This document shows, one piece after another, positions 1,687 through 31,415 of a stretch of DNA of 64,000 nt. How positions within the stretch are numbered: position 1 is the stretch's first letter; every line of letters starts with the position of its first letter. Location: contig NZ_CP133089.1 of assembly GCF_030908405.1 (NCBI RefSeq), positions 1,860,001-1,924,000 on the forward strand, written 5' to 3'. A program made the translations under genes and the position numbers. The notes below the pieces were generated by a model. The model ran no database searches. It worked only from the letters and a program-made list of their open reading frames with translations, and had not been told where the DNA came from. Source of the DNA: Aminobacterium sp. MB27-C1 (lineage in GTDB: Bacteria; Synergistota; Synergistia; Synergistales; Aminobacteriaceae).

Positions 1687-2352
1687 TTATAATGCTACTT
1701 TCTTATTTTGAAGCATTATTCCAAATAAAACTGTTCCAAAGACACATAAGGGAATTGTGATCCATATAGGAAACCAACCAAGCTTAAGTGCAATAATACC
1801 TAAAACAAGTGCAATGACTCCAAGCTTAAAATCTCGAATGACAAAGCTTCCAAAAACCCCTCCAAAAATAGCCGGAAGAATATACTTAAATGCCTCTAAT
1901 ACAAGAGGTGGAAAACTAGCAACAAGCTTTGCACCTAAGCCAATTCCAATTGTTAGAATAAAAATGTTTATCAATATGGAAACCCCAATACCCAAGGTAG
2001 ATAAAATAGCCCCTTCATAAGAACCCTCTTCCACTCCAGCTGCCTCTTGAGCAAGGGCAGAACAAGGAAGTCTGACATTGGAAATGTTACCAGAAAGGAA
2101 AGACATATAGGTTCCAGGAACCCCCAAAATAGGGAAATATGCCAAAGGTTCAACAAACCATAATGGACCAGAGTAAGCAAAAATTAAGGCAAAACCAGAG
2201 ATTATGGCCTGCAACGGAGGCATAATATTATATTTTGCAAAAATATAAAGGGGAGGGGAAAAACTCAACAAAAAAGCAAACAGACATGTCAATATCCCCC
2301 AGAAAACAATTGGTTTTTGGAATTTTTCTAAGAAAATCTCTTTCTGTGACAT
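1687..2352 (-). CDS. Uncharacterised membrane protein, first half of a paired transporter-like module
   Basis: A polytopic membrane protein of 221 residues with about five to six hydrophobic segments and no signal peptidase site. It has a conserved central stretch, 'FPILGVPGTYMSFLSGN', followed by 'ISNVRLPCSALAQEAAG'. Both recur almost unchanged in the paralogue at 21954-22649. It is followed on the same strand order by a DUF5058-like membrane protein and an M20 peptidase, and this three-gene order is repeated in the second module. I know of no characterised homologue. The conserved GxPGTY and RxPC motifs inside a membrane protein, and the linkage to a hydrolase, suggest a transporter or channel subunit. 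That is inference. A ribosome binding site (AGGAGAGG) precedes ATG 2352. Confidence 0.75.
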   Translation of the reverse strand: MSQKEIFLEKFQKPIVFWGILTCLFAFLLSFSPPLYIFAKYNIMPPLQAIISGFALIFAYSGPLWFVEPLAYFPILGVPGTYMSFLSGNISNVRLPCSALAQEAAGVEEGSYEGAILSTLGIGVSILINIFILTIGIGLGAKLVASFPPLVLEAFKYILPAIFGGVFGSFVIRDFKLGVIALVLGIIALKLGWFPIWITIPLCVFGTVLFGIMLQNKKVAL

Positions 2353-2367
2353 TTTTGCTCACCTCTC

Positions 2368-3075
2368 CTAAAAAAGGACTGCGGAGAACATACCTAAAGC
2401 CATGGCGACACCTAAGGACCACTCTTTAAGCCATCTCTTACCCAATTTATCCGCAACTATCTGCATCACTACCATTGTCAAAGCAGCCACAATAGCAGCA
2501 ATACTAGGACGACCGACAGTAACAAGAGCTTTTGACACCTGAAACCCAAAAGCACCCAAAATAGCACCTATCGATATTACGGGTAAAAGATCCTGTCTCT
2601 TCCCTACAATGCGAGACCTTAATCCATCTAGTTTGTGGGTAAAAAGCCCCGTAATTAACAACCATCCACAAGATCCCAAAGCAATAACCCATAATGAGTT
2701 TGCAAACTCTAGCACTCCGTATCCTTCAGACCCCACAGATGTACCTAACACCTGAGCTCCACATTCAGCAGCATAACCTTCATACATCACTGCTCCTATA
2801 ACAGAAAGTCTCATCCATGCCATCGGAGCCCCTATAATAGCAATAAGAGCAACCATACCGATAAGAACAGCAAATGATGGACCTAATGATGAAATTACTG
2901 CCGAACGGAGTCCACTCTTCAGTTGCTCTGGTCTAAGCCCCATTTCCAAACCAGTAAACCATGCTTTTTTCATAAAAATAATGGATTGGAAAACAACGAT
3001 ACTAACCATAACAATACCAATAACCCAGAAACCCCATTCATTGGCTACTTCTAAATAATCTGGCATTATCAACAT
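2368..3075 (-). CDS. DUF5058-like membrane protein, second half of the paired module
   Basis: A polytopic membrane protein of about 235 residues with roughly six hydrophobic segments. It resembles DUF5058 proteins by its opening ('PDYLEVANEWGF'), its loop ('ISSLGPSFAVLIGMVALI') and the later 'GAPMAWMRLSVIGAVMYE'. The paralogue at 22662-23360 has the same landmarks ('SSIGPSIVIVIGMVSLL', 'GGPTALMRLAYIGNVAYE'). It lies 15 bp upstream of the partner gene at 1687, so the two are surely co-expressed. The function is unknown; pairing with M20 hydrolases points to uptake of the hydrolase's substrate or export of its product. ATG 3075, TTG 3072 and ATG 3066 are all possible starts around the GGGAGG site. 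Confidence 0.75.
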   Translation of the reverse strand: MLIMPDYLEVANEWGFWVIGIVMVSIVVFQSIIFMKKAWFTGLEMGLRPEQLKSGLRSAVISSLGPSFAVLIGMVALIAIIGAPMAWMRLSVIGAVMYEGYAAECGAQVLGTSVGSEGYGVLEFANSLWVIALGSCGWLLITGLFTHKLDGLRSRIVGKRQDLLPVISIGAILGAFGFQVSKALVTVGRPSIAAIVAALTMVVMQIVADKLGKRWLKEWSLGVAMALGMFSAVLF

Positions 3076-3107
3076 TCACCTCCCAAGAAAGAACAAACAA
3101 ATCGCCA

Positions 3108-4301
3108 TTAAGAAAGATAATCCAGAGCTAAAGCAATGTAGAACTTAGTGGCATCAATAACACTAGAAAGTTCAACGTATTCGTCAATCTTATGATTCCT
3201 TGTAAAATTCCCTGGGCCATAAATAATGACAGGTATTTCAGGATTAATTTCACGAAATGGCACTGCATCTGTGTAATACACAACACCTTGTAAATCTGGT
3301 TTTTTTGAAAAAAGCTGCTCATATGAATTCTCAGCACTTTTTACTAGAGGGTTGTTAGGATTTGTTTCAATAGGCAAGAGATTATGCAGAATTTCATACG
3401 TTATATCCATGTCTTTATTTTGCGATTTTAACTTTTCTATTATGGCATCAATTTGAGCAAGAAGTGCAGCATGATCATTCCCTGGAATTGTCCTTATATC
3501 AACTTTAGCTTCACATCTGTCAGGAATAATATTAGTGAGATCTCCAGCATGCATCGTTGTAAGGCTAAAAGTGGGGGCGGAAAGATAGGTATTTTCCATC
3601 TCCTTGAATTTAAGGTCTTTAAGCTGGTTCATAAATTCAATCATATTTGTTAGTGCATTAACTCCTTGTTTAGGTTGTCCACCATGAGCCCTTTTCCCTT
3701 TTGAAATGAACTTGAGCCACAATGTACCTTTTTCAGCGACAAAAACAGTGCCATTACTTGCCTCACTTATAGCAATGGCATCGATGCCATCTGCTCCATA
3801 TTTTTCTACATACGCTCTTGAGCCATAAAGGTCCACTTCTTCTCCAGACGTCCCCAATAAACTCAAAGAACCTTTTAATTCAATTCTAGCTTTTTTAAGA
3901 ATACACATAGCTAAAGTCATCGCGGTAACACCAGCTTTCATGTCACTGGTTCCGCGGCCATACATTAAGTCTCCTTCTATTACTGCACCAAAAGGAGCAT
4001 GCTTCCATCCTTCTCCAGCAGGAACAACATCATAATGCCCGCTATAAACAAGATTTGGACCATTAGAATTATTCCCAATTTTTGCCATTAAATTAGCGCG
4101 ATTGCTTTGATTTAATTCCCATATTTCTGAACTTATCCCATAACTTTTTAGTTTCTCATGAACTTTGTAGGCTACGTTTATTTCATTGCCTGGAGGGTTA
4201 GAACTATTCACTTGAATTAATTCAGAAAGGAATTCAATGACCTCCTGCTCATCCAACAAAGATATACACTCATCATATTCTTTTTTTCTACTAAAAAGCA
4301 T
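3108..4301 (-). CDS. M20 family peptidase/deacylase (ArgE/DapE/ACY1-type)
   Basis: A cytoplasmic zinc-dependent hydrolase of 397 residues, the usual length for M20A enzymes. The metal and catalytic motifs are visible in order: 'YSGHYDVVP' (metal His, catalytic Asp), 'GRGTSDMKAG' (bridging Asp), 'SGEEVDLYG' (general-base and metal Glu). The dimerisation lid lies in the middle ('KRAHGGQPKQG'), and the C-terminal metal His in 'NFTRNHKIDEY'. The family removes acyl groups from amino acids or splits small peptides; the exact substrate cannot be read from sequence. The gene heads an operon with the two membrane proteins below it. ATG 4301 is preceded by AAGGGGG at good spacing. Confidence 0.9.
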   Translation of the reverse strand: MLFSRKKEYDECISLLDEQEVIEFLSELIQVNSSNPPGNEINVAYKVHEKLKSYGISSEIWELNQSNRANLMAKIGNNSNGPNLVYSGHYDVVPAGEGWKHAPFGAVIEGDLMYGRGTSDMKAGVTAMTLAMCILKKARIELKGSLSLLGTSGEEVDLYGSRAYVEKYGADGIDAIAISEASNGTVFVAEKGTLWLKFISKGKRAHGGQPKQGVNALTNMIEFMNQLKDLKFKEMENTYLSAPTFSLTTMHAGDLTNIIPDRCEAKVDIRTIPGNDHAALLAQIDAIIEKLKSQNKDMDITYEILHNLLPIETNPNNPLVKSAENSYEQLFSKKPDLQGVVYYTDAVPFREINPEIPVIIYGPGNFTRNHKIDEYVELSSVIDATKFYIALALDYLS

Positions 4302-15192: not shown

Positions 15193-15316
15193 CAAAATTA
15201 AGTTAATAACAAATTACAAAATAAATTGTTTAAAAATTCATTAATATTTTACAAGCAGCATCTACAACACTTTGATCTCCACCAGCAAATCTGCTACAAA
15301 CAAAAGGAGGAGTATC

Positions 15317-16924
15317 ATGAAAAGAATGGAGTTAGCAAGGATTCTGCGAAAACCCGGAGAAAGCATACCTATAAAATTTGGTGATCCTCATCATGACCAA
15401 TGGATTTTTGACATGTATGGTGGCGAACAAATCGTTAAAGAAAAATTGCCTGTTCTCTATAATGCTTTACGAACAACGGCATTGATTTCCCAAGGGGAAG
15501 TTAAGGAGAAAGAGACAGAAGGATTCGAAGATGGAGCTGAAATAGGAATCATCAAATGGGATAAGGAAAGCCACTCTCTCGTAATCAAAGCATCAACATC
15601 TCTCGTTTCAAAAGCTCTTTATATAGACGAAAAAATCGAAGTACGCACGTCAAAAGATGAACATGTAGCTACCTTTGCCCAAACGACTGAGGAGACAGAT
15701 CACACGAAACTGGTACTCTGTTCTGATTTCGATCCTGCGGACTATGCCTCAAACGTACTGGAAATAGACTATACTTCCCATTGGGCAGAAGCGACAAATG
15801 GACAACTTAAAGGATTTCTGAGCAGCCGCAATATAGAGTCGCAAATATATCTATCTGGCGAAGTAAAAGAAGTACACTTACTAAAACCCGTCAAAAAGGA
15901 TTCCACCCAAGAGAGCCCCATCAATATTTGCTACAACCGCAGACCTGTTGCCGAAGAGGAAATTGATTACATCTATGAGGAAAGCTTCGATCCTGCTACT
16001 GGAAAACAACGTCTCTTCGCGCCTCTCTCCGCATGGGTGGAGTTCGAAGATGACAGTGATCCTTTTAGATGTATTGATCTTAGTACCTTTGATCTGAAAC
16101 TAGACTGCCAAAATGGTATTGCACGCTACACGAAGACAGACAGAGAAATTCCGCTGCAAGACAGGTTCGTTAAAGGTCAGGATGCACCGGCAAAGTACAC
16201 AAATGGTTTTTTCTTCGACCTTGATCCAGACTGGAAGACAAATGTTCCTTCTAACCGATTACCTCAAAAAGACAAAGTCGACATCTACTTCACTGTTCAA
16301 TATGTAAGAGAGAGCGGTGATAGAGGCAGCATACAGATCAGTAGCACGCTGGCCCCCCCTATACCTTCTAATGCCGCCCTTTCCAGATGCCTGCATATTC
16401 TGTGGGGATGCTTGTCTAAGGGAACTAAAATTCTCATGGCTGACGGATGTGAACGCCCTATCGAAACTATAAAGATCGGTGACTTAGTACAGATGAACAC
16501 CAACGGTTATACTGCTGTAGTAACACAATGTATTAGGGGTAATGAAAAAGATGACATGATCCACTTCCACACACTAAACGGTCTTGACCTTGTCTGCACT
16601 AAAGACCATCCGATTGTTACTGACAAGGGAGCTATGAGAGCATCAGAAGTAACTGGCAACTGCCACTTTATACATCAAACTGGAGAAATCCTTAAACTTA
16701 CAGGCATATGGGAAGTGCCCGGCGACGAGGTTTATAACTTGGAACTATGCCCCCAAGAAAATGATCCTTCCTCAAAAGAAGGCTGTACTTTTTTCGCTGA
16801 AGGTATCCTTGTAGGAGACAACAATATGCAAGCACTAGTAAAAGCACCTACGAATGAGATATTCGACAATCCCCACAGAGATAGCGCCGCAGTCAAGCAA
16901 ACTCTGTGGGAGGCAATGAAATGA
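15317..16924 (+). CDS. Hint-domain protein of unknown function
   Basis: A 535-residue protein with no signal peptide or membrane helix. Residues 1-362 are an unrecognised, charged, mostly beta region with several Asp/Glu-rich segments. Residues 363-506 are a Hint (hedgehog/intein) autoprocessing domain. Cys365 opens it in 'WGCLSKGTKILMADG'; the block B His431 lies in 'TKDHPIVTDKG'; the closing strands are 'VYNLEL' and 'FFAEGILVGDN' (from Phe492). No homing endonuclease is inserted, and the usual terminal His-Asn is not evident, so Cys-dependent cleavage at Cys365 is more likely than splicing. A ~30-residue tail follows. ATG 15317 has AAAGGAGGAG. The last codons overlap the start of the LamG gene (ATGA), so both are made together. 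Confidence 0.78.
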   Translation: MKRMELARILRKPGESIPIKFGDPHHDQWIFDMYGGEQIVKEKLPVLYNALRTTALISQGEVKEKETEGFEDGAEIGIIKWDKESHSLVIKASTSLVSKALYIDEKIEVRTSKDEHVATFAQTTEETDHTKLVLCSDFDPADYASNVLEIDYTSHWAEATNGQLKGFLSSRNIESQIYLSGEVKEVHLLKPVKKDSTQESPINICYNRRPVAEEEIDYIYEESFDPATGKQRLFAPLSAWVEFEDDSDPFRCIDLSTFDLKLDCQNGIARYTKTDREIPLQDRFVKGQDAPAKYTNGFFFDLDPDWKTNVPSNRLPQKDKVDIYFTVQYVRESGDRGSIQISSTLAPPIPSNAALSRCLHILWGCLSKGTKILMADGCERPIETIKIGDLVQMNTNGYTAVVTQCIRGNEKDDMIHFHTLNGLDLVCTKDHPIVTDKGAMRASEVTGNCHFIHQTGEILKLTGIWEVPGDEVYNLELCPQENDPSSKEGCTFFAEGILVGDNNMQALVKAPTNEIFDNPHRDSAAVKQTLWEAMK

Positions 16925-19900
16925 GCCATCAGAGAAGAAGTTTTTTCTCTCTGAAATGCAACCCTCCCGACTGTGCCATCATAAATGATCCCCCACTCAT
17001 ATCCCTATGCGGCAGTACTCCTTTCACCCTTAGCGCAAGATTCTATATCTCTAGCCGGGAATCAAATGCCACGATAATCACCCAAGAAGGCGTTTTTTCC
17101 TTAGAAATAGTAAAGGGTGCTCTTCGTTTTTTCTCAAAGGGACTAGGAACCTTCACTCTTGACATCGCTAAAGACCCTCTTGCAGAAAGGGACTGGAACA
17201 AAGTTGACATCGTCTACGACAAAACCAACGTCATAATATATTTACAAGGTTTTCCCGCACTGTCAGCCAAAACATCTTCCTCTCAATCTTCTTTCATCGA
17301 CAAGAATACTCCATGGAAAATGGGCCTTATGGAGGGCTATTTACAAGATGTGGAGTTCTACTCCCAAGCTCTAGATAAAGATGAAGTACAAAAACTCTTC
17401 TTCTCCAATCATCATATTTCCCGAGATAAGATTGAATTATGGGCCGATTTTGGGGAGTACGAACCGCTTGACCGCAGTTCCCGTAAACATAAGCTACAGC
17501 TGACGGGAGGTTGCGACATAGTGAATCTGGTATATGGTATTACGCCGGGGAAAGAAGGTTGTATTGTTCCTATAGGAACCGCTCCCGTCAACCCAGGAAG
17601 TAAAGAGTGTTCAACGTTCACATTATTAGCTAAAGTGTATCTTGGCATTACGACAGAGGATAATGACACATATATCTTTTGTAACGGCACACCTGAAAAA
17701 CCAGGATCCGTATGTTTGGGTTTATCCGATAAACAGACTCGCCCATTTTTTTCATTGGGAGAGAAACGTTTTACCTTCGACAGAGAGATCAAAGCTCAGA
17801 GATGGATAGACCTAACCGCGACTGTCTCTAGTACCTCAGTAAGCCTTCACATAGATGGATCCCCCGCTGGGAGCCATACCATCTCAACGTCCCCAGCAAG
17901 AACAGAAGGAGCCGAAATATACTTGGGCAACTGTCAGAAGGGAAGAACTTTCAACAACGGCCTCCAAGGACATCTGGATAGTATCTGTATCTTTTCCTCT
18001 GCCTTGACAGCAGAGAAGCTAACAGAATACGCTGATGTAGCACCTTACTACTTCGCCCCCGATCTAAAGGCTCTATGGATATTTTCTCAAGAAGGCAACG
18101 GCGCAGAGATCCTCCATGGTGGGAACCTCGCATATTCGAAAACAGAAGTAACCCTTATTGAAAATACTGTCTTAGACAGAGAACTACCTCCGTTCGAATT
18201 CGCCATGCCCGATAATGAAACAGGATTTAGCAACATGGAAGAATGGCAAAATCGTTTCGCCGCTGAAGTCTTCCTGCAAATATTGCATTCCGTAACAGGT
18301 CTTGAAGCTACGAGGGGATTTAAAGACGAGGAGAAACAGAAACTCAACGGTTCAATGTCGCTACTACTGAGGAATTGCTTAACTTCTGATCCTTCACTAT
18401 CGAATCTAATGATAGAAGACGAGCCAGATTCTAAAGATATTCTCGAGTTTATTCTTGCCATATACGGGTGCTTTGAACTGAGCGTTATACTATACTCGTT
18501 TTATTGTGCTTGGATCACACATAACCCCTTTGGGACAAGACCCTTCATGGTACGATTCCTCTATTGTGTAAGCAAATGCATAAAAAGTCCGGAATATCTT
18601 GCAGCAAATGGAGCCTTTATCCTGGCTGTCAGTAGAGGAATAAAGGGATACAGGGAAATACACCATTTTCCCAACACCGATCCATCTCAACCTACTGGTA
18701 GCGAAGAGTGCACCCTTTTAGTTAAATCCATCGCCTTCTACGATGAAACACTTATCGATGCAGGAGCGCTGTTAGGGAGACCTGATTTCGACCATGATCC
18801 TGTGCTTCCTGAATGGAATTCTTCGGAACTTAAGAACGCATCGATTCTCTATCATAATCAGGGAGAAAAGACAGAAAACATATTCGTCAAGGCAACCCTC
18901 AACTGCAACAATTTCACCAATGAGAAAATTGTTGTCACTATAGGTGCCAGGACACCTGAGAAATCCCTTTTAGGAAGAATCCCAGAGATAAACTTTACAG
19001 TTACGAAAAGCGGAAACTATACTGTTAAACTTCCTTTGAAGGATAATACTCTTTCTGGAGCACATTCCCAATGTTACACTCAACAATGGGAATGGTATTT
19101 CAAGGTAAAAGGAAAAGTCGAACCGCTGGGAACCACAGAACATAAAATCTACGTCATCTTAGGAAAGCCCTTATCTCCATGGACAACAGAGAAAGATACT
19201 GCCAACTTGCCTGTCTACCCCATGATAGACTTATGCAACGAAGTGACCAAACAGGAGTGTACGGAGACTGCAAAAGATAGAAAATTTGCGTCTCAGTTCG
19301 TAAAATGGTTCAGAAGCTGCGGGAAATTTGCTTCCAGAGAAAGGCTAGATAGCCCACAGAATGCAAGATGGACCAATTTCCACCGCATCCTTACCATAGA
19401 CGGCAAGGCTATCTTGACATCTATTCAAAACTTCGAAAAAACCCAAAAAACCGAGAACAAGGCCGCTTTCAACGATTTGGAAACAGCTTGTTTCCACTGC
19501 CTACTTGCCCGATTGGAAGGAGTGGAAGGCATAAAGATTCTGGAACTTTCTCCAGGACATAATGTATCAGGATTCTTGCTTAGAGGCGGTAAAGGACCTG
19601 ACGGCATCGTTATGGAAAAAGGAATAAGGGGAACCTATTCCGTCTGCGGAATCTATCCTGGAAGTGGCAAAATTCCACAAATTTGGGATGCTTTCCTGCA
19701 GTTGAAGGGCTCCGACAACAAATGGATAACCGCAACCGGTATAGCCTTTGGAGCTGGTGATAGGAAAAGTGATTTAGTAGGAACAAAAGATGATAAACAA
19801 TATCGCTCTCTTTTATGTATGCCGTTCAACACTTGCCAAGTGGGATTAAAAATAAATGTTCTTAAAATGAACACACTCCCTCTCACAAAGATAACGTCAG

Positions 19901-20835
19901 GGAATCCAGTTTTGGATATAACTCCGGGCAGACTAGATTTTGACAAATCGGTACAAGAGGGAATAAAACTCAACCCATTTCAAGTTAGATGCCATGCAAT
20001 AAGTTACGAGTCAATAGAGAAAGCTATCGTTCTCTGCATCAACACAGCAAACGAGAATGCCTCACACATTGCCAAAGAAGATTATGTTAATCTACTTGAA
20101 AATTTATGCAGAGCGGTGACGCTTACCCCTGAAGGAGAGGTCCCCCTCTCAACAACAATGGAAGGCTCGACATTTCTTGAACTTGCATTTCTGGAAGAAG
20201 ATTTTAACTTTCCTCTTGACGATGAAGGCAAGAAAGACATTGTGGAATATTGTAATCAACTTCTCTATTCATTGAATAGCTGTCTACCTAATCTTCGAAC
20301 AGGGATGTCCGACTGGAACTCTTCAATTGGAGCTAATCTAGACTTGGAAGAATGGATCCATGTAACTGGAGATGGAGAACAGTGTTATGTAGACTGTGCC
20401 TGGGATAATCCGGATATCTTTGAAATTCTGGAAAATACTATTTTGTCAGGGCTGCCTGTTCCTCCAAACGTAGGTTTTTATATCAGAAACACAAAGGATT
20501 GCCACCGTCTCTTCCATTTGAGGGAATTCCTTCTCGGTATTCGCAATAAAGGTGCTTCTCCATTAAAACAAAATCCATTCATATTACGTATGGCCCATGT
20601 AGATCTATATAACGAACTTCTTCAAGATAAAATCAGTGACCCAAGAAAAAGGATACTCTCTTCTTCCAACAACAATTGGCGTTTAAACGATTATATTCGG
20701 CATAACATGTCATCATCTTATCCGCAAGAAGAGCCTATTTACTTCTTGGCTAAAGATAGTAATGGTAATCTATTTTGGCTACAATGGCCTAACGCACAAT
20801 ACATGTATAATATTCCATTACCTGCTAATAATTAA
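16921..20835 (+). CDS. Giant LamG-domain protein, partner of the Hint protein
   Basis: A 1304-residue protein without signal peptide. Two LamG/concanavalin-like jelly-roll modules cover about residues 30-160 and 225-375; the first shows 'RDWNKVDIVYDKTNVIIYL', the second 'RWIDLTATVSSTSVSLHIDG'. A helical, partly hydrophobic region spans about 430-585. An Ig/CARDB-like beta module (about 620-750) ends in 'TTEHKIYVILGKPLSPW'. Next comes a Cys-rich region recalling transglutaminase-like cysteine-protease modules: 'ACFHCLLARLEGV' (Cys857, Cys860) and 'IWDAFLQLKG' near 920. The expected catalytic His is not evident, so it may be inactive. The C-terminus (1000-1304) is unassigned. ATG 16921 overlaps the Hint gene stop, giving translational coupling. 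Confidence 0.72.
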   Translation: MSHQRRSFFSLKCNPPDCAIINDPPLISLCGSTPFTLSARFYISSRESNATIITQEGVFSLEIVKGALRFFSKGLGTFTLDIAKDPLAERDWNKVDIVYDKTNVIIYLQGFPALSAKTSSSQSSFIDKNTPWKMGLMEGYLQDVEFYSQALDKDEVQKLFFSNHHISRDKIELWADFGEYEPLDRSSRKHKLQLTGGCDIVNLVYGITPGKEGCIVPIGTAPVNPGSKECSTFTLLAKVYLGITTEDNDTYIFCNGTPEKPGSVCLGLSDKQTRPFFSLGEKRFTFDREIKAQRWIDLTATVSSTSVSLHIDGSPAGSHTISTSPARTEGAEIYLGNCQKGRTFNNGLQGHLDSICIFSSALTAEKLTEYADVAPYYFAPDLKALWIFSQEGNGAEILHGGNLAYSKTEVTLIENTVLDRELPPFEFAMPDNETGFSNMEEWQNRFAAEVFLQILHSVTGLEATRGFKDEEKQKLNGSMSLLLRNCLTSDPSLSNLMIEDEPDSKDILEFILAIYGCFELSVILYSFYCAWITHNPFGTRPFMVRFLYCVSKCIKSPEYLAANGAFILAVSRGIKGYREIHHFPNTDPSQPTGSEECTLLVKSIAFYDETLIDAGALLGRPDFDHDPVLPEWNSSELKNASILYHNQGEKTENIFVKATLNCNNFTNEKIVVTIGARTPEKSLLGRIPEINFTVTKSGNYTVKLPLKDNTLSGAHSQCYTQQWEWYFKVKGKVEPLGTTEHKIYVILGKPLSPWTTEKDTANLPVYPMIDLCNEVTKQECTETAKDRKFASQFVKWFRSCGKFASRERLDSPQNARWTNFHRILTIDGKAILTSIQNFEKTQKTENKAAFNDLETACFHCLLARLEGVEGIKILELSPGHNVSGFLLRGGKGPDGIVMEKGIRGTYSVCGIYPGSGKIPQIWDAFLQLKGSDNKWITATGIAFGAGDRKSDLVGTKDDKQYRSLLCMPFNTCQVGLKINVLKMNTLPLTKITSGNPVLDITPGRLDFDKSVQEGIKLNPFQVRCHAISYESIEKAIVLCINTANENASHIAKEDYVNLLENLCRAVTLTPEGEVPLSTTMEGSTFLELAFLEEDFNFPLDDEGKKDIVEYCNQLLYSLNSCLPNLRTGMSDWNSSIGANLDLEEWIHVTGDGEQCYVDCAWDNPDIFEILENTILSGLPVPPNVGFYIRNTKDCHRLFHLREFLLGIRNKGASPLKQNPFILRMAHVDLYNELLQDKISDPRKRILSSSNNNWRLNDYIRHNMSSSYPQEEPIYFLAKDSNGNLFWLQWPNAQYMYNIPLPANN

Positions 20836-20877: not shown

Positions 20878-20909
20878 AAAAAAGAATCCCTTGCGATTGC
20901 AAGGGATTC
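20878..20909 (-). terminator. Terminator of tRNA-Asn (copy 1)
   Basis: GAATCCCTTGC (20884-20894) pairs perfectly with GCAAGGGATTC (20899-20909). On the minus strand it is followed by six T residues. It also lies downstream of the LamG gene and may slow that transcript. Confidence 0.85.
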
Positions 20910-20941
20910 TTATATGTAAAAACATCTTGAATTCTAAAATT

Positions 20942-21017
20942 TGGCTCCTCGGGCAGGACTCGAACCTGCAACCTAGTGGTTAACAGCCACCCGCTCTGCC
21001 GATTGAGCTACCGAGGA
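20942..21017 (-). tRNA. tRNA-Asn (GTT), copy 1
   Basis: A 76-nt cloverleaf with 7-bp acceptor TCCTCGG/CCGAGGA, GTT anticodon, GGTTCGAGTCC T-arm and encoded CCA. It is identical to the copy at 31340-31415, but the downstream terminators differ. Confidence 0.97.
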
Positions 21018-21953: not shown

Positions 21954-22649
21954 TTATTCACTAGCATCAACACTGTTATCTTTATATGTAAGTTTGGCAA
22001 ATAACATCGTACCGAAAATAGGAACCAAAATATTTATGATATATGGATCTAACGGAAGCCAATTAAACAACCCTTTGTTATACAGAGTCAAACAGAGAAT
22101 GCCGAGCCCCATACCGCATACACCAGACTTCACATCGTCCAATGAAAACTGGGCAAAAACTGCACCAAACAGGGCCGGAAGCAAAAATGAAAAAGAATCG
22201 GTAACATTTTTGGGAAGCATAGCAATAAGCTTGGTTCCTACGATAACTCCTACAACAAGCAAAATAATATTAACAAAAACTGAGGCTCCTACGCCTATCG
22301 TCGATATAACCGAGCCCTCTTCAGATCCAACTTCCGTATTTGTCGCTTTAAGAGCTGCTGCTGCGCAAGGAATTCTAAGATTACTTATATTTCCAGATAA
22401 GAAAGAAATATATGTTCCTGGAATACCGAGTATCGGAAAGAAAGAAATAGGCTCAATGAACCACCATACTGCATTCACGGATAACTGGGCTACCAATGCA
22501 ACCATAAGAGGCCCTTTCTCGGGAACGATATTAAAAAGGTATGTAACTGCCAAGGCAGGAAAGAAAACGAGGAAAGCACCTATCCAGCATGTCCATTTTC
22601 CGGCCTTTGTAATTTGTGGAATATATGTATCGTTATAGTAGTTTTTCAT
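21954..22649 (-). CDS. Uncharacterised membrane protein, first half of the second paired module
   Basis: A polytopic membrane protein of 231 residues, paralogous to 1687-2352. The shared core is 'FPILGIPGTYISFLSGN' followed by 'ISNLRIPCAAAALKA', then a conserved GSEEGSVISTIGVG-type loop with acidic residues. It is the last gene of the M20-DUF5058-membrane protein operon and sits 12 bp after the DUF5058-like gene. The conservation of both subunits and their order in two distant modules argues that the two membrane proteins form one complex. No function is known to me. Confidence 0.75.
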   Translation of the reverse strand: MKNYYNDTYIPQITKAGKWTCWIGAFLVFFPALAVTYLFNIVPEKGPLMVALVAQLSVNAVWWFIEPISFFPILGIPGTYISFLSGNISNLRIPCAAAALKATNTEVGSEEGSVISTIGVGASVFVNIILLVVGVIVGTKLIAMLPKNVTDSFSFLLPALFGAVFAQFSLDDVKSGVCGMGLGILCLTLYNKGLFNWLPLDPYIINILVPIFGTMLFAKLTYKDNSVDASE

Positions 22650-22661
22650 CGTTTTTTCCTC

Positions 22662-23360
22662 CTAGATAAGTACTGCGCACAAAACGCCGCCTACCATAGC
22701 TATCGTAAGTCCCCACTCGTTCAACCATTTCTTTTTCGTTTTCTTGTAACAAATCATAATAGCCAACATAAGGAGGAACCCCGCCGACAAAGCAACTGTC
22801 TTTCCATCCATACTAATTGCATATCCTGCATTTAAGTATCCATAGGCTCCCAACATTGCAGCTGTTGATATAACAGGAACCATTCTAGAAGCACCGCCAG
22901 TAAATTTATTTTTGAACTTATCCATTTTGTCTGTAATCAAGGCGGTAAAAACAATCCATCCAATGCAACCTACTGCCATTGCCCATAAGGTTGTTACAAA
23001 AACACCTTGAGGAATAGAGGGATCTGTGAGCACTACTCCGTAAGCATCAGCAGCAAATTGAGCCGCAAGCAATTCATAAGCTACATTACCGATATATGCC
23101 AATCTCATTAATGCAGTGGGGCCACCTACAACAATAAGCAAAGAAACCATTCCAATAACGATGACTATCGATGGACCTATTGAGGAAATAGAGCCTGTTA
23201 TAAACGCTGTTTTCATTTTTTCCTCGCTTATTCCCATCTCTTTTCCTGCTTTAAAGCTCTTTTTCAAAAAGATTATGGTTTGAAATAACACTAATCCGAC
23301 CGCAAGTGCTGTTATCCCCCAAAGAAGAGGACTATTTGCTATCGATGCGTAGCTTTCCAT
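22662..23360 (-). CDS. DUF5058-like membrane protein, second paired module
   Basis: A polytopic membrane protein of 232 residues with about six hydrophobic segments, paralogous to 2368-3075. Landmarks are 'SYASIANSPLLWGI' at the start, 'SSIGPSIVIVIGMVSLLI', 'GGPTALMRLAYIGNVAYE' and the C-terminal 'KKWLNEWGLTIAMVGG'. It starts at ATG 23360 after GGAGGTAT, only 4 bp after the M20 stop codon, so all three genes are tightly co-translated. I infer a role in moving the substrate or product of the adjacent hydrolase. Confidence 0.76.
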   Translation of the reverse strand: MESYASIANSPLLWGITALAVGLVLFQTIIFLKKSFKAGKEMGISEEKMKTAFITGSISSIGPSIVIVIGMVSLLIVVGGPTALMRLAYIGNVAYELLAAQFAADAYGVVLTDPSIPQGVFVTTLWAMAVGCIGWIVFTALITDKMDKFKNKFTGGASRMVPVISTAAMLGAYGYLNAGYAISMDGKTVALSAGFLLMLAIMICYKKTKKKWLNEWGLTIAMVGGVLCAVLI

Positions 23361-23364
23361 ATGC

Positions 23365-24561
23365 CTATACCTCCATGTTTTCTGTTATTTTGTCCATGAT
23401 CCCGGTTAGTAATTCAACCCCGATACATAGACATTCTTCGTCAACGTCAAATAATGGATGATGGAATGTAATTTTGCCCAAATCATCTACTTTAGAGGTT
23501 CCAAAATAAAAATAACTTGCTTTAGATTTCAAACCATAATATGCAAAATCGTCATACCCCATCTCAGGCAGTTCCATATACGAGACATTTTCAGCACCCA
23601 GAACTTCATTTCCTACAGATTCAAAAATATCAATCATGTCGTCTTCGTTTTTAAGTGCAATGCTTATAGTCTCTATATCAATTTCAGAGGAACACCCTCT
23701 TAATACACAGACACTCTCAAGTATTTCTTTTATTCTCTTCAAGACAAAGGTTCTGACTTCACTATCAAAGGTCCTGACCGTTCCGCTCATAGTGACTACA
23801 GGAGGAATAACGTTTGTTCCCTTTGGAGTTCCTGCATTAAAGGAACATATGGATAACACTGTAGATTTCACAGGATCAAGCTCTCGAGTCAACATGTTTT
23901 GCAACGCGTTATAAACTTCCACTCCGGTCATGAGAGCATCTTTTGTCTGATGAGGATAAGCGCCGTGACCACCAGTTCCCTTGATCGCTATTATGAAGTT
24001 ATCTGCACTAGCCAACATTTCATTTCTCCGCAGAAGCATAGTGCCAACAGGATGGTCTGGGTTCGTATGGAACCCAATCATTACATCAATATCATCAACC
24101 TGTCCGCTATCAGTAATCAGCTTGGCGCCACCAGGAGCCGGCCCCTCTTCTGCAGGCTGGAAAACAACTTTCAATGCTCCCTTCAACTCATCTCTGTGTT
24201 CTGAATAGTATTTCAGTACACCAAGGGCAACCGTAGTGTGGACATCGTGTCCACAAGCATGACACACGCCAGGATTCTGCGATTTGTAATCTACATCTTT
24301 CTGATCCACTATGGGCAAAGCATCAATGTCTGCCCTTATGCCAATTACTGGCCCATCGCTATTTCCTTCTATTGTCGCGATGACAGCAGTTTTGCAGAAA
24401 TTCTTTACAACGCTAACACCCGGGAAATCCTCTAATATCTCTACGATTCTTCTCGACGTACGAATTTCTTCAAATCCTGTTTCAGGATGTTTGTGAAAAT
24501 CTCTTCGCCAGCAAACCATCTCTCCCTTATAGCTGCGAATACACTCTTTTCTATCTGCCAC
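23365..24561 (-). CDS. M20D-type amidohydrolase (N-acyl amino acid / hippurate hydrolase-like)
   Basis: A 398-residue cytoplasmic metallohydrolase of the IAA-amino-acid/hippurate hydrolase group. It differs in subfamily from the M20A enzyme at 3108. Metal motifs: 'GIRADIDALP', 'GVCHACGHDVHTT' (metal Cys and His), 'PAEEGPAPGGA' (Glu-Glu) and 'IGFHTNPDHPVG' (His). The lid has 'GTGGHGAYPHQTKDAL', and the C-terminal metal His is in 'ITFHHPLF'. Members release free amino acids from N-acyl or aromatic amide conjugates. ATG 24561 has AAGGAGG. It heads the operon. Confidence 0.92.
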   Translation of the reverse strand: MADRKECIRSYKGEMVCWRRDFHKHPETGFEEIRTSRRIVEILEDFPGVSVVKNFCKTAVIATIEGNSDGPVIGIRADIDALPIVDQKDVDYKSQNPGVCHACGHDVHTTVALGVLKYYSEHRDELKGALKVVFQPAEEGPAPGGAKLITDSGQVDDIDVMIGFHTNPDHPVGTMLLRRNEMLASADNFIIAIKGTGGHGAYPHQTKDALMTGVEVYNALQNMLTRELDPVKSTVLSICSFNAGTPKGTNVIPPVVTMSGTVRTFDSEVRTFVLKRIKEILESVCVLRGCSSEIDIETISIALKNEDDMIDIFESVGNEVLGAENVSYMELPEMGYDDFAYYGLKSKASYFYFGTSKVDDLGKITFHHPLFDVDEECLCIGVELLTGIMDKITENMEV

Positions 24562-31339: not shown

Positions 31340-31415
31340 TGGCTCCTCGGGCAGGACTCGAACCTGCAACCTAGTGGTTAACAGCCACCCGCTCTGCCGA
31401 TTGAGCTACCGAGGA
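31340..31415 (-). tRNA. tRNA-Asn (GTT), copy 2
   Basis: A 76-nt cloverleaf identical to copy 1 at 20942-21017, with encoded CCA. It is the last gene of the six-tRNA cluster and forms the intact end of the putative island 24875-31339. Confidence 0.97.

What the first reader, a model, noticed from the sequence alone, without database searches (positions are those of the whole stretch)
15317..20835. Coupled Hint-domain and giant LamG protein pair, a candidate new system
Two genes share an ATGA overlap, so they are made together. The first has a Hint domain with intact nucleophile Cys365 and block B His431, but no endonuclease and no clear terminal His-Asn. The second is 1304 residues with two LamG modules, a hydrophobic helical block, an Ig-like module and a Cys-rich region recalling transglutaminase-like modules. 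Neither has a signal peptide, yet LamG and Ig-like modules usually act outside the cell. One reading is autocatalytic release or anchoring of a partner after non-classical export. The base composition seems more GC-rich than the AT-rich two-component genes upstream, which may hint at transfer.
Basis: partly seen in the sequence, partly recalled or inferred. Interest (0 to 1): 0.82.

Follow-up and report, generated by a model that had tools for sequence, protein, structure and literature searches.

The report
Hint protein paired with LamG giant
Two overlapping bacterial genes encode a protein with an intein-like self-cutting domain and a giant lectin-like partner; the same pair sits side by side in five other bacteria from two other phyla, which suggests a leaderless two-protein device in which one part cuts or chemically activates itself, but what it acts on is unknown.

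Summary
Gene 1 (15317-16924, 535 aa) has a real Hint domain: AlphaFold pLDDT 82.7, TM-score 0.88 to the gp41-1 intein. It overlaps gene 2 (16921-20835, 1304 aa, two LamG modules) by ATGA. Related pairs in the same order occur in Gordonibacter, a second genome of its family and three Lachnospiraceae. In 723 genomes, every full-length partner lies next to the Hint gene. In 30 Hint relatives Cys365 and His431 never vary; the usual terminal His-Asn is Gly-Asp (once Gly-Glu) without a conserved nucleophile after it, so N-terminal cleavage or acyl transfer is expected, not splicing. The N-terminal half is tandem beta-sandwiches. Leader-bearing relatives carry a cysteine pair that all leaderless ones lack, which speaks for a cytosolic protein; two sister loci place the Hint gene beside RHS-repeat and eCIS_core giants. 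Base composition equals the genome mean and gives no sign of transfer; the Hint tree (nearest kin in another phylum) and a variable 32-kb stretch, 2-4 kb in both congeners, do. A related bacterial Hint subgroup was noted in 2008. New here are the leaderless branch and its tight pairing with giants. Chemistry and target are inferred.

The parts
15305..15310 (+). Shine-Dalgarno AGGAGG, 6 nt before the ATG of the Hint gene
   Evidence: sequence
15317..16924 (+). Hint-domain protein, 535 aa, no leader peptide
15317..16408 (+). N-terminal module (residues 1-364): short helical start, then tandem beta-sandwich domains; conserved motif N-R ... D-Y
   Evidence: AlphaFold model; Foldseek to tandem beta-sandwich proteins; alignments
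16409..16822 (+). Hint domain, Cys365 to about Asn502
   Evidence: Pfam; Foldseek (gp41-1 intein TM 0.88, BIL 2lwy 0.79, Hedgehog 1at0 0.69)
16409..16411 (+). Cys365 codon, predicted N-S acyl shift nucleophile, invariant in 30 aligned members
16607..16609 (+). His431 codon, block B histidine (T428-x-x-H431), invariant in 30 aligned members
16814..16819 (+). Gly500-Asp501 in place of the intein penultimate His and terminal Asn; the residue after it (Asn502) is not a nucleophile
16921..20835 (+). Giant partner, 1304 aa, start overlaps the stop of the Hint gene (ATGA)
17002..17415 (+). LamG module 1 (about residues 28-165)
   Evidence: Pfam Laminin_G, (limits approximate)
17611..18018 (+). LamG module 2 (residues 231-366)
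   Evidence: Pfam Laminin_G_3
18439..18495 (+). Hydrophobic helix 507-525, candidate membrane segment; the top hydrophobic stretch falls in this zone in all six partner proteins
18712..19161 (+). Ig-like beta module, about residues 598-747
   Evidence: only moderately confident part of the model
19363..19932 (+). Degenerate transglutaminase-like region: C-H-D motif in G283, G470 and G117 relatives; Cys and His lost here
   Evidence: motif only; profile searches 97, 98 negative
19930..20832 (+). C-terminal domain with invariant RCHxxS and NLRxG...WNxSI motifs; also found alone in genome G307
20882..20911 (.). 13-bp stem-loop after the unit (terminator-like, T tail on the minus strand)
20942..21017 (-). 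tRNA-Asn, identical (76/76) to the copy at 31340-31415, inside the variable region

Best explanation
The pair is a leaderless two-protein unit. Gene 1 makes a tandem beta-sandwich domain fused to a non-splicing Hint domain. The Hint domain very likely moves the chain from nitrogen to sulphur at Cys365, making a thioester at Gly364. This is resolved by water, giving a free beta-sandwich domain, or by a nucleophile on another molecule, giving a conjugate, as Hedgehog does with cholesterol. Splicing is not expected because the terminal His-Asn is Gly-Asp and no nucleophile follows. The LamG/Ig giant made from the overlapping gene is the dedicated partner: the most likely binder or receiver of the processed domain, and a glycan- or membrane-binding part. 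The unit has moved between phyla and probably acts as a cytosolic or delivered effector-like assembly rather than as a Sec-exported surface protein. Shown: pairing, Hint fold (by prediction), invariant residues, loss of the intein C-terminus, absence of leaders. Inferred: cleavage, nucleophile, binding of the partner, delivery.
For: Hint fold. Cys365, His431, Gly500 and Gln505 are among only 8 invariant columns in 30 proteins at 21% mean identity. G-D or G-E end and a +1 residue that is mostly not a nucleophile in all 30, including members not found through that motif. Related pairs in the same order in six genomes, five of them with overlapping stop/start. Full-length partner only beside the Hint gene in 723 genomes. 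Leader and cysteine pair go together, 11 of 11 against 0 of 19. Sister loci have other leaderless giants beside the Hint gene, including an RHS-repeat protein and an eCIS_core protein. The tree puts the window with Gordonibacter and its kin, support 100/99.
Against: No cleavage, conjugation or binding was measured. The leader/cysteine link is one event on the tree, so it is not replicated. G117 has a LamG/Ig/transglutaminase-like protein with no Hint gene beside it. Whether the genome holds any injection system was not tested. The partner fold beyond LamG is unresolved.
Confidence: 0.5

Rival explanations
1. Plain autocleaving bacterial intein-like (BIL type B-like) protein: Hint releases the beta-sandwich domain by hydrolysis, and the LamG giant is a functionally linked but chemically independent neighbour.
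For: BILs lack the +1 nucleophile, and type B BILs cleave without splicing (PMC4031507). Hint family members occur with many unrelated partners, so a partner-specific chemistry is not needed.
Against: Strict adjacency and overlap with one partner family in this clade.
Confidence: 0.3
2. Effector-like cargo of a contractile injection or RHS-type delivery system: both leaderless proteins are loaded and delivered, and Hint processing frees a part during delivery.
For: eCIS_core protein just upstream of the Hint gene in Streptomyces sp. RP5T (PF13699, E 9.5e-24) and an RHS-repeat protein just upstream of it in G288. C-terminal domain of the partner found alone in G307 in the same stretch as an eCIS_core protein. 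DUF4157 (eCIS_core) marks injected cargo (PMC11297309).
Against: Only two of about 19 leaderless loci show such genes. No injection-system gene was seen near the window pair; the rest of the genome was not searched for them.
Confidence: 0.2
3. Surface or envelope display: the giant is a membrane-anchored lectin-like protein reached by the processed domain after non-classical export.
For: LamG and Ig-like modules are usual outside cells; hydrophobic segment in the same zone in all six; the leader-bearing branch is exported.
Against: No leader on either protein in any of the six pairs; the cysteine pair of the exported branch is missing in all leaderless members.
Confidence: 0.15
4. Decayed intein or genetic remnant with no present function.
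For: Sporadic occurrence; transglutaminase-like triad lost in this sub-branch.
Against: Invariant catalytic residues across 30 diverged proteins, intact reading frames, conserved gene pair.
Confidence: 0.05

Closest known systems
Bacterial Hint-like proteins with leader and two conserved upstream cysteines (Burglin 2008, PMC2362128; Reinekea, Myxococcus, Photorhabdus and others)
   Same: Hint domain at the C-terminal side, weakly conserved N-terminal region, some with signal peptides, two conserved cysteines; a Reinekea member (L025) is in our leader-bearing branch
   Different: Window protein and its clade have no leader, lack the cysteine pair and are paired with a giant LamG protein; the paper's alignments were not readable here, so identity of the groups is inferred
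Bacterial intein-like (BIL) domains, type B
   Same: Hint fold, no +1 nucleophile, no usual block G, cleavage without splicing expected
   Different: Found here in a fixed two-gene unit with a near-invariant GDxxxQ ending; cleavage not tested
Hedgehog C-terminal (Hog) domain
   Same: C-terminal Hint after an N-terminal domain; Gly-Cys junction; fold match 1at0
   Different: No sterol-recognition region seen; nucleophile unknown; no sequence membership
BUBL1 BIL2 domain of Tetrahymena (structures 6y75, 6tmm)
   Same: Hint fold among the best matches (TM 0.71-0.76)
   Different: No ubiquitin-like unit recognised in the window pair
Polymorphic toxins with pretoxin Hint
   Same: Hint in large multi-domain loci; RHS-repeat neighbour in G288
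   Different: No toxin domain follows the Hint; only a tail of about 30 residues

Membership tests
Hint (Hedgehog/intein) superfamily | Hint fold | tested here: met
   TM 0.88 to gp41-1 intein; Pfam above cut-off
Hint (Hedgehog/intein) superfamily | N-terminal Cys/Ser and block B TxxH | tested here: met
   C365, T428, H431
Intein | terminal Asn (or Gln/Asp) followed by Cys, Ser or Thr | tested here: not met
   Asp501 followed by Asn502; relatives have mostly N, F, Y or L there
BIL type A | C-terminal His-Asn | tested here: not met
   Gly500-Asp501; definition from PMC4031507
BIL type B | no resemblance to intein block G, no +1 nucleophile | tested here: inconclusive
   block G differs and +1 is not a nucleophile, but no type B reference alignment was available
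BIL type B | cleavage without splicing | not testable with these tools
   needs purified protein
Hedgehog | sterol-recognition region and sterol transfer | not tested
   none seen by eye; the tail after the Hint is about 30 aa
Burglin 2008 bacterial Hint-like group | two conserved cysteines upstream of the Hint | tested here: not met
   C205 present, second cysteine absent (Ile216); 11 of 11 leader-bearing relatives have both
Transglutaminase-like core (partner) | Cys-His-Asp triad | tested here: not met
   triad in the G117, G283, G470 alignment; Thr, Ser, Asp in the window protein
Transglutaminase-like core (partner) | profile match | tested here: not met
   no Pfam or PDB profile hit
LamG / concanavalin A-like lectin fold (partner) | Laminin_G_3 above curated cut-off | tested here: met
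   84.2 bits against 27.6, two stretches
eCIS cargo | location within or near an eCIS gene cluster | tested here: inconclusive
   none recognised near the pair; whole genome not searched for eCIS; association only in sister loci

The most novel reading that the evidence does not exclude
A bacterial Hedgehog-like ligation device: the Hint domain activates the C-terminus of a tandem beta-sandwich protein as a thioester and hands it to a dedicated giant acceptor encoded by the overlapping gene; across lineages the acceptor (LamG, FN3-like, propeller-like, RHS, eCIS_core) is exchanged while the donor stays.
Probability: 0.2. Interest if true: 0.82.

Novelty: new variant of a known kind. Interest (0 to 1): 0.55.

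Why it matters
Hint domains outside inteins and Hedgehog have few known jobs. A leaderless branch with invariant catalytic residues, a changed C-terminal motif and exchangeable giant partners gives a testable case of bacterial protein conjugation or programmed release, and an explanation of why such LamG giants without leader peptides exist. If it is only a cleaving BIL, it still adds a defined gene pair and a marker motif (GIxVGDxxxQ) with which to find the rest.

Tried and rejected
AlphaFold of partner residues 425-1304 with five sequences failed (pLDDT 38); both prediction jobs are used. Profile searches of the partner's C-terminal regions against PDB and Pfam gave nothing. PADLOC gave only a weak homing-endonuclease match at the Hint, and PHROGs only weak matches. 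Viral contigs: no relative of the partner, only generic Hint/intein matches. The first genome scan with the single protein found nothing; the alignment-based one found 34 loci; that scan used the VGD motif, so the motif was judged also on members found by other routes. Compositional transfer was rejected. Integrase-borne origin: no integrase recognised by eye between -0.5 and 31.3 kb. G117's 342-aa upstream protein as a split N-terminal module was rejected. A likeness of the RCH...WNSSI motifs to endonuclease VII-type motifs was thought of from memory and dropped for lack of evidence.

Full report
What is there. Gene 1 runs from 15317 to 16924 (535 aa, AGGAGG six bases before the ATG) and gene 2 from 16921 to 20835 (1304 aa). 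They share ATGA. Pfam finds a Hint match at 365-433 in the first and two LamG stretches in the second. NCBIfam puts the first close to the intein N-terminal splicing region but below its cut-off. Neither protein has a leader.

Hint fold. With 27 sequences AlphaFold gives pLDDT 82.7 for the first protein. Foldseek finds the gp41-1 intein (TM 0.88 by target length, E 3.4e-10), the BIL domain of Clostridium thermocellum (0.79), the BIL2 domain of Tetrahymena BUBL1 (0.71-0.76 over four chains) and Hedgehog (0.69); longer matches to tandem beta-sandwich proteins cover the N-terminal half.

Family. A tblastn of plasmid records found Tistrella, Embleya, Azospirillum and Pseudoalteromonas relatives. 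Their alignment served for a scan of GTDB contigs that returned 34 loci, and a profile of the close relatives found more in whole genomes. In a 30-sequence alignment with 21% mean identity only eight columns are invariant, and Cys365, His431, Gly500 and Gln505 are among them. Where other Hint domains end in ...VHN, this family has ...VGD (once GE), and the next residue is mostly not a nucleophile; two leader-bearing members have Ser or Thr there. The GTDB scan searched for that motif, but members from the plasmid and genome-profile searches have it too. Some inteins ending in Asp or Gln can cleave at the C-terminal side by cyclization of that residue (PMC4031507), so C-terminal cleavage is not excluded; splicing is unlikely.

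The pair. Gordonibacter sp. Marseille-P2775 has both genes (45% and 32% identity, nearly end to end), as do a second genome of its family (G126) and three Lachnospiraceae-family genomes (L012, G283 and, with a shorter partner, G470). Stop and start overlap in five of the six; L012 has a gap of about ten bases. With a model of partner residues 425-1304, 138, 397 and 188 genomes were searched: full-length matches occur only in the five genomes with the Hint gene next to it (the G470 partner is shorter and was found by another route). Exceptions at the margin: G117 has a related LamG/Ig protein without an adjacent Hint gene, and a Hint-only ORF of 184 aa far away; G307 has the last domain alone.

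Partners change. Sister branches of the Hint family have other giants beside them: FN3-like proteins plus a second protein of about 1100-1270 aa in Tistrella, a Peptococcaceae and a Lachnospiraceae genome, FN3-like giants of about 2000 aa in Embleya and Streptomyces, proteins of propeller-like appearance in Lachnospiraceae, an RHS-repeat protein in G288 and an eCIS_core/beta-propeller protein in Streptomyces sp. RP5T. Most of these have no Pfam match, and some of these labels are by eye.

Place of action. Eleven members have a hydrophobic N-terminus, and all eleven carry cysteines at both positions equivalent to 205 and 216; none of nineteen leaderless members does (Fisher p 2e-8). On the tree this is a single change, so it counts as one event. 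The simplest reading is that leader-bearing members form a disulphide outside the cytosol and leaderless ones do not. Burglin (PMC2362128) described bacterial Hint proteins with leaders and two conserved upstream cysteines, from Reinekea among others; that is probably the leader-bearing branch, but I could not read the supplement.

The partner beyond LamG. The strongest hydrophobic stretch lies in the zone 503-578 in all six. An Ig-like module follows. Then comes a region with Cys-His-Asp in transglutaminase order in G117, G283 and G470, but with Thr, Ser and Asp in the window protein; the assignment rests on motif alone. The last 300 residues have invariant RCHxxS and NLRxG...WNxSI motifs and no relative found except in the other pairs and the solitary copy in G307.

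Origin. Genome GC is 0.415 (240 kb sampled) and the pair has 0.42-0.43; codon usage is within the background. The two-component genes upstream are the AT-rich ones. The pair is absent from both congeners and from all other genomes held of its phylum. That group holds 188 genomes, too few to be Bacillota or Actinomycetota, where the nearest kin are; on the tree the window pairs with the two Gordonibacter-family genomes inside a group of LamG-paired Lachnospiraceae (100/99). Transfer between phyla is therefore likely, and old enough for composition to have levelled. In the congeners the stretch from the gene before the window to the tRNA cluster at 31.3 kb measures about 2-4 kb; here it is about 32 kb. 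tRNA-Asn is duplicated without a difference at 20942 and 31340. No integrase was recognised.

Mechanism. Shown: fold (by prediction), invariant residues, pairing, lack of leaders. Inferred: N-S acyl shift at Cys365, resolution by water or by a nucleophile, and the partner as binder or acceptor. I put about 0.6 on Cys365-dependent cleavage or acyl transfer and 0.2 on transfer to the partner. Delivery by a contractile or RHS system would explain giants without leaders, but rests on two sister loci and one solitary domain.

Verdict. Real, conserved and under-described, but in a known superfamily and with a subgroup already noted. New variant of a known kind.

Noticed in passing
window -420 to 31295, with tRNA-Asn at 20942-21017 and 31340-31415: Variable region of about 32 kb upstream of a tRNA cluster; 2-4 kb in both congeners; tRNA-Asn duplicated without a difference; no integrase recognised.
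   Followed up: partly
1687-4301 and 21954-24561 (minus strand): Two paralogous three-gene cassettes, two membrane proteins plus an M20-type hydrolase, 40%, 37% and 25% identical, on both sides of the pair.
   Followed up: no
L186:6530-7378 (G307): Solitary 282-aa copy of the partner's last domain (RCHTVS, NLRYG...NSSI) in the same stretch as an eCIS_core protein and a BTAD/AAA regulator.
   Followed up: partly
L140:7270-7824 (G117): Hint-only ORF, 184 aa, starting MNGCCCVEAS and containing VGDNNEQ; no N-terminal module.
   Followed up: no
L185:5116-8178 (G117): 1020-aa LamG/helical/Ig/transglutaminase-like protein with a Cys-His-Asp motif and no Hint gene beside it; an unrelated 342-aa ORF lies upstream.
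   Followed up: partly
L003, L019, L038, L039, L006: Hint gene followed by FN3-like giants whose ends look like a beta-grasp (SLBB-like, by eye); further giants follow in most, and in L003, L019 and L038 an MBL-like or endonuclease/phosphatase-like ORF (by eye).
   Followed up: no
L005: Azospirillum relative of the Hint gene next to LodA/GoxA oxidase, tryptophan 7-halogenase and ferritin-like genes.
   Followed up: no
L135:5397-6551: DUF6765 protein two genes upstream of the Hint gene in G473 (PF20551, E 3.8e-44).
   Followed up: no
G062 partner (L181 / L012): The model match to the partner includes one in-frame TGA, so this copy may be shortened at its end.
   Followed up: no
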